A DNA stretch of 35,321 bases from Acidobacteriota bacterium (lineage in GTDB: Bacteria > Acidobacteriota > Terriglobia > UBA7540), in assembly GCA_902812465.1 (NCBI GenBank), contig CADDZE010000039.1, positions 1 to 35,321 on the forward strand, written 5' to 3'. Below the pieces are notes generated by a model. It made no database searches. It was not told where the DNA came from and saw only the letters and a program-made list of their open reading frames with translations. This document shows, in pieces, positions 12,907-17,850 of the stretch. How positions within the stretch are numbered: the stretch's first letter is position 1; every line of letters begins with the position of its first letter. The translations under genes were made by a program, and so were the position numbers.

Positions 12907-13746
12907 ATGGCCATGGAACAAGTACCAGCGACCATGACGATGCCGGAGCGAAGGAGCTATACGTCGATATTCATTGCCATTTTCATATTGCTGACTCTTC
13001 TTGGCGCCGGGGAAATCGTCAGCCTGAGCCAGATCCGATCCATGAAGTCCGGGCAGGCCCAACTTCAGAAGCAGCTGAACGAACAACTGGCAAGTAAGAT
13101 CGCCGCGATTGAAAACTCCAGCGCACAGCAACTGAGCGCGCTCAAGGCCGAACTGGATCAGACCGCCGCCAGCATGGGGGCTACTGGCAAACAGTTGAGC
13201 AGCGCCCGTGCCATGGTGGCCCGTCTGGCCAGGCAGCAAAGGCAGGAAGCCGCCGAGCTGGCCAGGAAGGCCGACGAGGAGAAAGTCGGCGCTATCGCCC
13301 AGGACGTAAGCGCCACTAAGACCGACCTCGACACCACCAAGAAGAGTGTGGACGAGCTCTCGAAGGACCTCGGCATGGCCAAGAGCGAATTCGGCACATT
13401 GATCGCCCGCAACCACGATGACATTGAGGCACTGCGCAAGCTAGGCGAGCGGGATTATTTCGAGTTTACCCTCAGCAAAAACCAGAGGCAAACTATCGCC
13501 GGGGTGGGCGTGACGCTGAAGAAGACCAACGTCAAGCACAACCGCTTCGACCTGGTCCTCTTGGCTGACGACATGACGATCGAAAAGAAGGGGCGAACCG
13601 TCAACGAGCCTATATTCTTCTACACGGCTGGCTCGAAGAAGCCCTACGAGCTGGTAGTGAACAAAGTGAGTTCTAACAGCGCTACGGGCTATATCAGCAC
13701 GCCGAAGGGGGCCACGGAGATGGCCTCCCGCGGGAGCGCAAGCTAA
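12907..13746 (+). CDS. Membrane-anchored coiled-coil protein of unknown function (paralogue 1)
   Basis: 279 residues. A short cytoplasmic N-terminus is followed by one membrane segment (SIFIAIFILLTLLGAG, about residues 20-37) and then a conserved E-I-V-S-L-S-Q-I. A long Gln/Ala/Lys/Glu-rich coiled coil with heptad-like spacing covers about residues 45-170, and a compact C-terminal beta-rich domain about 175-275. The C-terminal domain has the blocks GTLIARNHDDIEALRKLGER, VGVTLKKTNVKHNRFDLVLL and EPIFFYTAGSKKPYELVVNK. I do not recognise the family. The membrane helix would place the coiled coil and beta domain in the periplasm. The ATG at 12907 has AAGGAG 8 bases upstream. It is followed after 242 bases by a clear paralogue, so the two arose by tandem duplication. 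Confidence 0.85.
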   Translation: MAMEQVPATMTMPERRSYTSIFIAIFILLTLLGAGEIVSLSQIRSMKSGQAQLQKQLNEQLASKIAAIENSSAQQLSALKAELDQTAASMGATGKQLSSARAMVARLARQQRQEAAELARKADEEKVGAIAQDVSATKTDLDTTKKSVDELSKDLGMAKSEFGTLIARNHDDIEALRKLGERDYFEFTLSKNQRQTIAGVGVTLKKTNVKHNRFDLVLLADDMTIEKKGRTVNEPIFFYTAGSKKPYELVVNKVSSNSATGYISTPKGATEMASRGSAS

Positions 13747-13988
13747 ACTAATCAGTCGTATCGAGGGGAGTGCCCTGGGGGGACGCGGTCAGGTACCCTC
13801 CAGGCGGATAGGTATACAAGCCAGCGCACGGCGGATGGTGCCGCGGCCGCGGTTTAGGCCATTGGCTGATCCTGGAAACCATGGCAGTCTTGCCGCACCC
13901 CCTTGGGGAGATCATCCCGCGCGTCGGCGGCAAACCAGTAAGCTACCTTCCGGGCACTCGGAGGTTCAACGAAAGGGGAGATAAGAAG
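13747..13988. other. Spacer between the coiled-coil paralogues
   Basis: 242 bases without a gene. A TATACA at 13813-13818 could be a -10 box but no -35 hexamer stands at the right distance. The sigma-54-like site seen before the first paralogue is not repeated here. Confidence 0.35.
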
Positions 13989-14888
13989 ATGGCCATCGAT
14001 GACGTTCCGCCTGTCAGAGGCTCCAGCGTAGTACCGGCCGAAGAGCCCCACCCTTACCGCGGTATTCTGATTGGCATTTGCATCGTACTGGCGCTGCTGG
14101 TGATCGGCGAAATTTACAGCCTCAGCCAGATCAGCTCGATGCGCGCATCTCTGGCAGCCGAAAATGCCGCCGCCCAGAAGCAGCTTTTCAGCCGGATCAA
14201 TGATCAGTTCTCAAGCCGCCTTGCGGCGCTCGAAAGTTCCAGCGCCCAGCAAATCTCCGCCTTGAAGGACGAGCTGGACGCGGCCGCCAAGCGCATGGGC
14301 TCGACGGGGAACGAGTTGCGGCGGGCGCGCGTCATGGTTTCCGAGCTACAGGCCGCACAGGAGCAAACTGCAGCCGAGTTGAAACAGGAGCTTGCCCAGA
14401 AGGCCGACGCGCAGCAGGTGGGCACGCTGAGCCAGGACCTCTCAGGCACTAAAACCGATCTTGCCAGCACGAAGAAGCAAGTGTCGACCCTTGCCTCGGA
14501 TTTGGGAATGGCCCGAAGTGAGCTGGGTACGCTGATTGCCCGCAATCACGATGACATTGAGACCCTGCGCAAGCTGGGTGAGCGCAACTACTACGAGTTC
14601 ACGCTAACTCGCAACCAGGAGCAGAAGGTGGCAGGCGTCGGGCTAGTCCTGAAGAAGACCAATGTTAAGCATAACCGCTTCAACCTCAACCTGCTGGTGA
14701 ACGACACGGTGATTCCCAAGGATGGCCGCACCATCGATGAGCCCATCTTCTTCACCACCAGTGGCTCGAAGGGTTTCTACGAGCTGGTGATCAACAAGGT
14801 GGAGCGCGACAAGGTTATCGGCTATCTCAGCACACCGAAATTCAACAGCGAGATGGCTAACGCTGCCAATTCTGAGGCGACGCGTTAG
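13989..14888 (+). CDS. Membrane-anchored coiled-coil protein of unknown function (paralogue 2)
   Basis: 299 residues from ATG 13989, chosen because AGGGGAG sits 8 bases upstream; an in-frame start at 13881 has no such site. The layout is the same as in the preceding gene: membrane segment (GILIGICIVLALLVIG, about residues 25-41), then E-I-Y-S-L-S-Q-I, a coiled coil to about residue 195, and the same C-terminal domain (GTLIARNHDDIETLRKLGER, LVLKKTNVKHNRFNLNLL, EPIFFTTSGSKGFYELVINK). The C-terminal domains of the pair are far more alike than the N-termini and coiled-coil surfaces, which suggests that the terminal domain carries the function. Its stop is only 15 bases from the convergent M42 stop. 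Function is unknown; an envelope scaffold or sensor is a guess. Confidence 0.85.
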   Translation: MAIDDVPPVRGSSVVPAEEPHPYRGILIGICIVLALLVIGEIYSLSQISSMRASLAAENAAAQKQLFSRINDQFSSRLAALESSSAQQISALKDELDAAAKRMGSTGNELRRARVMVSELQAAQEQTAAELKQELAQKADAQQVGTLSQDLSGTKTDLASTKKQVSTLASDLGMARSELGTLIARNHDDIETLRKLGERNYYEFTLTRNQEQKVAGVGLVLKKTNVKHNRFNLNLLVNDTVIPKDGRTIDEPIFFTTSGSKGFYELVINKVERDKVIGYLSTPKFNSEMANAANSEATR

Positions 14889-16272: not shown

Positions 16273-17850
16273 CTAGCGCTGGGCCATGGCCTCGTCGATG
16301 AAACGAGCCACGTTCTGCTTCAGGTCGGCCAGCGACTGTGTGTCGATATAGACCATGTGACCGGAGCGGTAATAGGCCATCGAGACATTCCGGCGCAGGC
16401 TGGGGTCGAGCCCCATGTGGTCGAACGTGTATTCCATGGCGAAGTAAGGTGTGGCCAGGTCGTAGTAGCCCGCATTGACCAGAACGCGCAGGTAAGGGTT
16501 CTTGGCGAAGGCGCTGCGCAGCGCTGCACTCACGTCCGGGTAGCGGCCGGGCGACTGCATGTCCCATCCTGATAGCCCCCCGCCCAGAATGTAGTACTCC
16601 AGGTCGGACTTATAACCCAGTTCACCACGCACGTAGTGGTTAAACATGGCAGTGTAAGGCGGGCGAATCGCAGCCATCGAGGGGTCGAAGTCCGGAAGCT
16701 CGGAGGCGGGAATGTAGTCGACACCTTCGAAGCGGCTATCGAGTCGCCCGACGGTGCGCCGCCGGTCGCGTAGCAGGGCTTTGGTGAAGTGCTCAATCTC
16801 GATGCGCAGGTTGCTCTGGTCGATGTAGGTTGGATCGAGGCCGGTGTAGCGCGCCAGCTGGCCGATCACCCTCTGGCGTTCGTCAGGAGTTAGCCGGTCG
16901 CCCTTGGCCAGGGCTGGTGCGTACTCATTCATCGTCCACTGCTCGGCCTGGTGCAGCACCGGGATGAGGTCTTGCTGCTGCAGGTCGGGAGGCAGCCTCT
17001 TGTGATACCAAGCTGTGGCGGTATAGCTGGGGACGTAGAGGATGCAGGGCAGGTCGTTGTTGGCCGCAAATTCGATGGTGGCAAAATCGATGACCGTTGA
17101 AACCAGGACGATACCGTTGAAGGCGATGCCGTGTTCGATGAGATAGCCGGAGAGTGCGCTGGCGCGCGTCGTGCCGTAGCTCTCGCCCACCAGGAAAAGT
17201 GGCGACGCCCAGCGCTGGTAGCGCGTCAGGTAAAGCCGGATGAATTCGCCAACCGACGCCACGTCACCCTGGCGAGTGAAGAAGTTCTTGGCCAGCTCGG
17301 GCTTGGCAGCGCGGCTGTAACCAGTGCCAACCGGGTCGATGAAAACTAGGTCCGTCTTATCCAGCCACGTATACTCGTTGTCCACCAGGTGGTACGGCGG
17401 CGCGGGCATGAAGCCATTCTCGAGCATCTGGACGCGCTTTGGACCGAGGGCACCGAGGTGGAGCCAGACCGAGGATGATCCGGGCCCGCCGTTGAAGGAG
17501 AACATCAGCGGCCGGCGGTCAACGGGGCCAGCGTTGTCCGCCGTGTAAGCCATGAAGAAGATGTGAGCCTCGGTCTCACCGCTGCGGGCGTTCTTGAGGG
17601 GCATCATCCCGGCCGTCACGGTGTATTTCAACAGCCTTCCGCCGATGCGAATTTCGTGGCGCGTGACGACTGGCGGCTCCTCTGGTTTCTCCTTCTCTGC
17701 CCCCTGTTTCTCACCGGGCTTCGGCGTGGGCGCGGCCGGCTTGGGCGCTTGTGCAGTCTCCGCGGGCTCTTCCGCTTCCGGAGGATTCGGCCGGCGCTGG
17801 GGGAGGGGCGCGAGCAGCAGGGCCGCGAGGACGAGAGCAACGAAGGACAT
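16273..17850 (-). CDS. Secreted S10-family serine carboxypeptidase
   Basis: 525 residues. Hydrophobic signal MSFVALVLAALLLAPL, then a Pro/Glu/Lys-rich low-complexity linker to about residue 60, then the alpha/beta-hydrolase domain. The oxyanion motif is FNGGPGSSSVW near 119. The catalytic triad is Ser224 (LVGESYGTTRAS), Asp464 (NAGYYDLATP) and His498 (YRSGHMVYID). It releases C-terminal residues from peptides outside the cytoplasm, typically at acid pH. S10 peptidases are common in Acidobacteriota and fungi but scarce in many other bacteria. The ATG at 17850 has AGGAG 7 bases upstream. A candidate promoter lies just before it, and it faces away from the AAA+ gene. Confidence 0.93.
   Translation of the reverse strand: MSFVALVLAALLLAPLPQRRPNPPEAEEPAETAQAPKPAAPTPKPGEKQGAEKEKPEEPPVVTRHEIRIGGRLLKYTVTAGMMPLKNARSGETEAHIFFMAYTADNAGPVDRRPLMFSFNGGPGSSSVWLHLGALGPKRVQMLENGFMPAPPYHLVDNEYTWLDKTDLVFIDPVGTGYSRAAKPELAKNFFTRQGDVASVGEFIRLYLTRYQRWASPLFLVGESYGTTRASALSGYLIEHGIAFNGIVLVSTVIDFATIEFAANNDLPCILYVPSYTATAWYHKRLPPDLQQQDLIPVLHQAEQWTMNEYAPALAKGDRLTPDERQRVIGQLARYTGLDPTYIDQSNLRIEIEHFTKALLRDRRRTVGRLDSRFEGVDYIPASELPDFDPSMAAIRPPYTAMFNHYVRGELGYKSDLEYYILGGGLSGWDMQSPGRYPDVSAALRSAFAKNPYLRVLVNAGYYDLATPYFAMEYTFDHMGLDPSLRRNVSMAYYRSGHMVYIDTQSLADLKQNVARFIDEAMAQR

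What the first reader, a model, noticed from the sequence alone, without database searches (positions are those of the whole stretch)
12907..14888. Tandem pair of uncharacterised membrane-anchored coiled-coil proteins with a shared C-terminal domain
Both proteins have one membrane helix, a conserved E-I-x-S-L-S-Q-I just after it, a long coiled coil, and a strongly conserved terminal domain (LIARNHDDIE.LRKLGER; LKKTNVKHNRF; EPIFF.T.GSK). I recognise no family. The conserved end and variable stalk suggest a periplasmic binding head on a stalk; the duplicated pair might form heteromers.
Basis: partly seen in the sequence, partly recalled or inferred. Interest (0 to 1): 0.6.

Follow-up and report, generated by a model that had tools for sequence, protein, structure and literature searches.

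The report
Acidobacterial stalked envelope protein pair
Two neighbouring genes encode related proteins that appear to be anchored in the inner membrane, carry a long rod (probably three-stranded) across the space between the membranes, and end in a small beta-sheet head; they belong to a widespread, unnamed protein family of Acidobacteriota whose task is still unknown.

Summary
The two genes (12907-13746 and, with a corrected start, 13989-14888) are 56% identical. Each has one N-terminal membrane helix, a long coiled coil and a confidently predicted all-beta head (residues 182-267 of gene 1, pLDDT mostly 91-98). No Pfam or NCBIfam family matches. The family was found only in Acidobacteriota: 91 of 396 sampled genomes, often 2-7 copies.

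New here:
(1) An invariant [IV]-A-x-[NT]-x-x-x-[LIV]-x-x-L core just below the head, the Asn-at-d pattern of parallel trimers.
(2) Cysteine is nearly absent, which fits a periplasmic location.
(3) Stalk length is narrow, 141-167 residues, about 21-25 nm if fully helical.
(4) The head's nearest fold is the periplasmic "beta cap" of CcsB/CcmF haem lyases. The structural match (Z 8.3) and profile match (E 0.009) agree, but each is near background.

Best reading: an inner-membrane-anchored, periplasm-reaching trimeric stalk with a docking head, working like SadB or an envelope spacer. Trimer, topology, partner and task are inferred. The duplication is not very recent (dS about 1.7); heteromers are untested.

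The parts
12907..13746 (+). gene 1, 279 aa, membrane-anchored coiled-coil protein with C-terminal beta head
   Evidence: ORF with AAGGAGA before ATG; family profile E 2.6e-112
12967..13023 (+). gene 1 transmembrane helix, residues 21-39, ending in GEIVS
   Evidence: mean hydropathy 2.38; helix in model
13054..13449 (+). gene 1 stalk, predicted helices within residues 50-181
   Evidence: AlphaFold model; heptad periodicity 3.5 in the distal stalk
13402..13434 (+). gene 1 trimer-type core I166-A-R-N169-...-I173-..-L176 just below the head
   Evidence: position-wise conservation in 91 family members
13450..13707 (+). gene 1 head domain, residues 182-267, eight strands
   Evidence: pLDDT mostly 91-98; head-only model pTM 0.75
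13989..14888 (+). gene 2, 299 aa, corrected start; paralogue of gene 1
   Evidence: GGGGAGA upstream; start agrees with relatives; family profile E 2.4e-119
14061..14117 (+). gene 2 transmembrane helix, residues 25-43, ending in GEIY
   Evidence: mean hydropathy 2.57
14118..14582 (+). gene 2 stalk, residues 44-198
   Evidence: by alignment to gene 1
14535..14567 (+). gene 2 trimer-type core I183-A-R-N186-...-L193
14583..14840 (+). gene 2 head domain, residues 199-284
   Evidence: 67% identical to the gene 1 head

Best explanation
Each protein is a signal-anchor protein of the inner membrane: a short cytoplasmic tail, one membrane helix, then a mostly helical coiled-coil rod of about 140-155 residues that forms a parallel trimer and reaches across much of the periplasm, carrying three copies of a small all-beta head at its far end. 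The head presents conserved residues (Arg182, Glu186, Glu248, Asn252, Gly261-Tyr262, Pro266-Lys267 in gene 1) that most likely dock a partner towards the peptidoglycan or outer membrane, so the trimer acts as a stalked periplasmic docking protein or spacer, in the manner of the inner-membrane trimer SadB. Shown here: gene structure, family, conservation, a confident head model, the conserved core pattern. Inferred: trimer, topology, reach and docking role.
For: One hydrophobic helix and a stalk of 141-167 residues (mean 154, sd 7) in 59 measurable members, i.e. about 21-25 nm at 0.1485 nm per residue if helical throughout. Core pattern below the head: I/V, Ala, Asn (79) or Thr (11), L/I/V and Leu in all 90 sequences that reach it; Asn at d beside branched hydrophobic residues is a recurring trimer feature (PMC12933892). 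Head folds confidently. Cysteine 12 of 8,584 head residues and 0 of 12,278 stalk residues against 1.04% in neighbouring proteins. Structural neighbours CcsBA, CcmF, an S-layer protein and a viral ectodomain are extracytoplasmic. In 12 loci of the closest relatives a gene of about 225-257 aa with a signal-peptide-like start follows directly on the same strand. Precedent: SadB, an inner-membrane trimer with coiled coil and beta head (PMC3953254).
Against: Lys/Arg counts flanking the helix (2.1 on the N side, 2.7 on the C side per 20 residues; C higher in 34 and N higher in 12 of 59) do not support N-in and lean mildly to C-in. No oligomer could be modelled, so the trimer rests on a sequence pattern. 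The model stalk has low-confidence breaks (around residues 91-94 and 125-135) and a distant clade has a Pro/Ala/Lys-rich interruption, so full helical length is an upper bound. Shared ancestry alone may explain the narrow length range. Gene neighbourhoods differ between lineages and give no functional hint.
Confidence: 0.5

Rival explanations
1. The head is a detached relative of the CcsB/ResB 'beta cap', the periplasmic domain over the haem site of cytochrome c synthases, and the stalked trimer serves cytochrome c or haem handling, or reuses the cap to hold extended polypeptides.
For: CcsBA is the first structural match of the head (7s9y Z 8.3, 80 aligned, rmsd 2.4; 7s9z Z 7.1), with CcmF fifth (6zmq Z 6.2). 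The head profile aligns to the ResB beta region with E 0.009, pairing DD..VNEP with DG..VN.P; the best of 44 unrelated families gives E 0.06, and 2 of 300 column shuffles reach the score. The ResB beta region maps to residues 233-303 of 7s9y, inside the structurally aligned range 100-306. Beta cap described in PMC10663686.
Against: Z of 7-8 is the usual best value for unrelated models (note). Foldseek alone finds no significant match and does not list CcsBA in its first 50. No Pfam ResB match. No invariant His or Met in the head that could hold haem, and no evident counterpart of the cap's conserved Phe240/Tyr245. The family does not go with strong ResB hits (5 genomes share both, 4.7 expected).
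Confidence: 0.2
2. Cytoplasmic protein: N-terminus outside, coiled coil and head inside the cell, as in membrane-anchored cytoplasmic coiled-coil proteins.
For: More Lys/Arg after the membrane helix than before it in 34 of 59 members, and an acidic N-tail (net -0.85 against +0.61).
Against: Strong cysteine depletion, head neighbours mostly extracytoplasmic, Pro/Ala/Lys-rich stalk linkers in a distant clade. Charges intrinsic to a coiled coil blur the rule.
Confidence: 0.2
3. Pure mechanical spacer or tether that fixes the distance between inner membrane and outer envelope.
For: Stalk length of 141-167 residues kept across strongly diverged members; several paralogues per genome would suit a structural role. 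Trimeric coils with such a role are known: SlpA, about 28 nm (PMC9388160).
Against: No SLH, OmpA-like or other recognised peptidoglycan-binding or outer-membrane part in the protein. Length may be conserved by descent alone.
Confidence: 0.2
4. The tandem pair forms a dedicated heteromer with divided roles (an addition to, not a replacement of, the best explanation).
For: The distal 70 or so residues of the stalk align without gaps between the two genes and the cores match. A second tandem pair exists in L020.
Against: Stalks differ by about 13 residues, 8 of them near the membrane and 4 mid-stalk. Most genomes carry dispersed genes. The pair is not recovered as sisters, but sisterhood is not rejected (p-AU 0.14).
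Confidence: 0.15

Closest known systems
SadB / YajI (inner-membrane trimeric lipoprotein, Enterobacteria; PMC3953254)
   Same: Anchored in the inner membrane, N-terminal coiled coil, C-terminal beta-sandwich head in the periplasm, trimer (trimer inferred for ours)
   Different: Anchored by lipid, much shorter coil, MATH-like head; no sequence match of the heads (hhalign E 0.41 against YajI) and no DUF3251 match
Beta cap of CcsB/ResB and CcmF (cytochrome c synthases; PMC10663686)
   Same: Nearest fold of the head; same order of the DG/DD and VN-x-P segments in the profile alignment
   Different: Ours stands alone on a stalk, without the multi-span membrane part, WWD site, haem-ligand histidines or the Phe/Tyr plug
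SlpA / OmpM outer-membrane tethers (PMC9388160, PMC10628300)
   Same: SlpA has a trimeric coil of periplasm-spanning length, as ours probably does
   Different: They are anchored by an outer-membrane barrel and bind the cell wall by SLH domains; ours is anchored in the inner membrane and ends in a beta head
Trimeric autotransporter stalks and phage fibres
   Same: [IV]xxN core motif and a coil joined to a beta head
   Different: No outer-membrane barrel anchor and no phage context; no phage, plasmid or viral-contig match

Membership tests
SadB/YajI (DUF3251) | Lipoprotein signal with lipobox Cys | tested here: not met
   Both window proteins have a plain membrane helix and no cysteine at its end
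SadB/YajI (DUF3251) | DUF3251 sequence match | tested here: not met
   No match among 37 heads at E up to 10; hhalign to E. coli YajI E 0.41
SadB/YajI (DUF3251) | MATH-type strand topology of the head | tested here: inconclusive
   MATH and SadB chains not among the listed structural rows; coordinates not available for tracing topology
SadB/YajI (DUF3251) | Trimer through coiled coil | tested here: inconclusive
   Asn/Thr-at-d core conserved in all members; no oligomer model or experiment
CcsB/ResB or CcmF | Multi-span membrane protein matching PF05140 or PF16327 | tested here: not met
   Single membrane helix; no Pfam match
CcsB/ResB or CcmF | Periplasmic beta-cap fold | tested here: inconclusive
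   Best structural hit Z 8.3 and profile E 0.009, both near background
CcsB/ResB or CcmF | Haem-site plug residues and histidine ligands | tested here: not met
   No invariant His in the head and no evident counterpart of Phe240/Tyr245
SlpA/OmpM tethers | SLH domain and outer-membrane barrel | tested here: not met
   Neither found
Trimeric autotransporter | C-terminal outer-membrane barrel anchor | tested here: not met
   Protein ends 12-15 residues after the head

The most novel reading that the evidence does not exclude
Acidobacteriota have built a family of inner-membrane-anchored, periplasm-spanning trimers tipped by a domain that descends from the beta cap of the haem-lyase proteins, cut loose from haem chemistry and reused as a docking head; its several paralogues per genome would make it an envelope system of this phylum with no known counterpart.
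Probability: 0.15. Interest if true: 0.65.

Novelty: new variant of a known kind. Interest (0 to 1): 0.4.

Why it matters
Little is known of how the envelope of Acidobacteriota, among the commonest soil bacteria, is held together. A family present in nearly every sampled genome of one class and absent from Pfam is a direct handle on that. The predicted trimer core, the stalk length and the possible haem-lyase-cap ancestry of the head each give a specific, testable claim. If none holds, it is still a clean undescribed family worth a Pfam entry.

Tried and rejected
Pfam, NCBIfam and PDB sequence searches with single proteins and profiles found only chance matches, mostly coiled coils. Foldseek against PDB gave no significant match; the 7s9y row at Z 9.9 for the full-length model has rmsd 14.7 and is not used. 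The viral structure library gave one hit under 0.001, His1 virus ORF23 (E 3.6e-5, rmsd 6.3), not pursued. Gene neighbourhoods: GlmU and a glycine-oxidase-like protein (both named by reading the sequence), HSP20-ClpB-M48, UDG/EVE, thioredoxin and others, all lineage-specific. Phages, plasmids and viral contigs: none. Co-occurrence with ResB: none. Promoter and terminator scan: not above chance. Rfam: none. A search centred outside Acidobacteriota could not be set up; the scan of 84,980 species used exact short peptides and returned only Acidobacteriota, so distant relatives elsewhere are not excluded. A first attempt to cut the ResB region used a wrong pattern and was redone; one search contained some wrong-frame sequences and is superseded.

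Full report
What is there. Two genes lie head to tail on the + strand. Gene 1 is 12907-13746 (279 aa). Gene 2 was given as starting at 13881, but the start at 13989 (299 aa) has the better ribosome-binding site and matches the starts of its relatives, many of which begin M[AP]ID[DE]. The proteins are 56% identical, with dN 0.37 and dS 1.70, so both are real, constrained genes and the duplication is not very recent. No sigma-70-like promoter or terminator stands out.

The family. No Pfam or NCBIfam model reaches its cut-off with either protein, and scans of 37 head domains at E up to 10 give nothing shared by more than two members. A third copy lies elsewhere in the same genome (contig C76). 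A scan of one genome for each of 84,980 species returned 34 loci, all Acidobacteriota (the method finds close relatives only). A profile search found the family in 91 of 396 Acidobacteriota genomes (three of them, G052, G110 and G332, by the stalk alone), including 46 of the 47 sampled genomes of the window's own class, itself counted. Most of 33 genomes carrying near relatives hold two to seven matches, some of them fragments. A tree of 91 members puts the window pair in one clade, the C76 copy in another, and shows a third, distant clade, with several genomes holding all three. The pair is not recovered as sisters, but sisterhood is not rejected (p-AU 0.14). Nothing was found in phages, plasmids or viral contigs.

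Anatomy. One hydrophobic helix follows a variable, mostly acidic tail. The stretch from helix to head is 141-167 residues in 59 members, mean 154. AlphaFold gives helices at 50-90, 95-124 and 130-181 and an eight-stranded head at 182-267 with pLDDT mostly 91-98; the head alone folds the same way. Hydrophobic periodicity of the distal stalk peaks at 3.5. Invariant residues in gene 1 numbering include R182, Y184, E186, F187, P235, F238, E248, N252, G261, Y262, P266 and K267.

Oligomer. Counting back from the head, positions -16, -13, -9 and -6 are I/V, N/T, L/I/V and L in every one of the 90 sequences that reach them. Spacing 3-4-3 puts the Asn/Thr at heptad position d. Asn triads at d with branched hydrophobic neighbours recur in parallel trimers, where they can hold a chloride ion (PMC12933892). 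The weak profile matches to PDB chains include fibritin, a short tail fibre, Lpp and UspA1, all trimers to my knowledge, but also dimers, and all have E above 0.01. The trimer is therefore a good inference, not a result.

Side of the membrane. Cysteine is 0.14% in heads, 0 of 12,278 residues in stalks and 1.04% in neighbouring proteins, as expected outside the cytoplasm, though coiled coils are cysteine-poor anyway. The head's structural neighbours are mostly extracytoplasmic. The charge rule does not help: flanking Lys/Arg lean slightly to a cytoplasmic stalk. I put periplasmic at about 0.8.

What the head resembles. With the head-only model, VIA-align ranks the CcsBA beta cap first (7s9y, Z 8.3, 80 aligned, rmsd 2.4), then dengue E domain I (7.4), an S-layer domain (7.3), CcsBA closed (7.1) and CcmF (6.2). 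Z of 7-8 is the usual best for unrelated models, and Foldseek alone is not significant. Separately, a profile of 93 heads aligned to the ResB beta region gives E 0.009, with VNEP on VN.P; 44 unrelated families do no better than 0.06, and 2 of 300 column shuffles reach the score. The ResB region falls at 233-303 of 7s9y, inside the structurally aligned range. The cap is proposed to close over the haem site in CcsB, and CcmF has a similar structure (PMC10663686). The head lacks the cap's Phe/Tyr plug and any invariant His, and the family does not co-occur with ResB (5 shared, 4.7 expected). A shared fold is plausible; a haem role is not supported.

Neighbourhood. Contexts differ by lineage: GlmU (read from the sequence) upstream and an exported-looking protein downstream in the nearest relatives, HSP20-ClpB-M48 in another group, thiolase or UbiD genes elsewhere. 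In the window the flanking genes are RsmI-like (PF00590), an M42 peptidase and others. None points to a pathway.

How it works. Most likely an inner-membrane-anchored trimeric rod carrying three beta heads toward the outer envelope and docking a partner there, comparable in architecture to SadB, which is thought to act on a trimeric autotransporter near the inner membrane (PMC3953254), with a possible spacer role like that of SlpA (PMC9388160). The family and anatomy are shown; trimer, side and reach are inferred; partner and task are unknown.

Noticed in passing
L005:1717-2487, and the same place in 11 other loci: A gene of about 225-257 aa with a signal-peptide-like start and a Gly-rich segment follows the family gene on the same strand in 12 loci; it has no Pfam match at 1e-5 and is the best candidate partner.
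   Followed up: partly
L008:3291-5183: GlmU-like protein with a C-terminal STAS-like extension encoded upstream of the family gene (read from the sequence, not searched); relatives near the family gene in 14 loci.
   Followed up: no
L131-L137: A distant clade of the family has a Pro/Ala/Lys-rich interruption in mid-stalk and a long Pro/Thr/Ser-rich tail after the head.
   Followed up: partly
window:17563-19689 and 16276-17850: Two long ORFs on opposite strands overlap by about 290 bases; the minus one matches Peptidase_S10, the plus one (709 aa) has no Pfam match at 1e-10.
   Followed up: no
head model against BFVD: His1 virus ORF23, a putative transmembrane protein, is the only viral structure match under E 0.001 (3.6e-5, TM 0.64, rmsd 6.3).
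   Followed up: no
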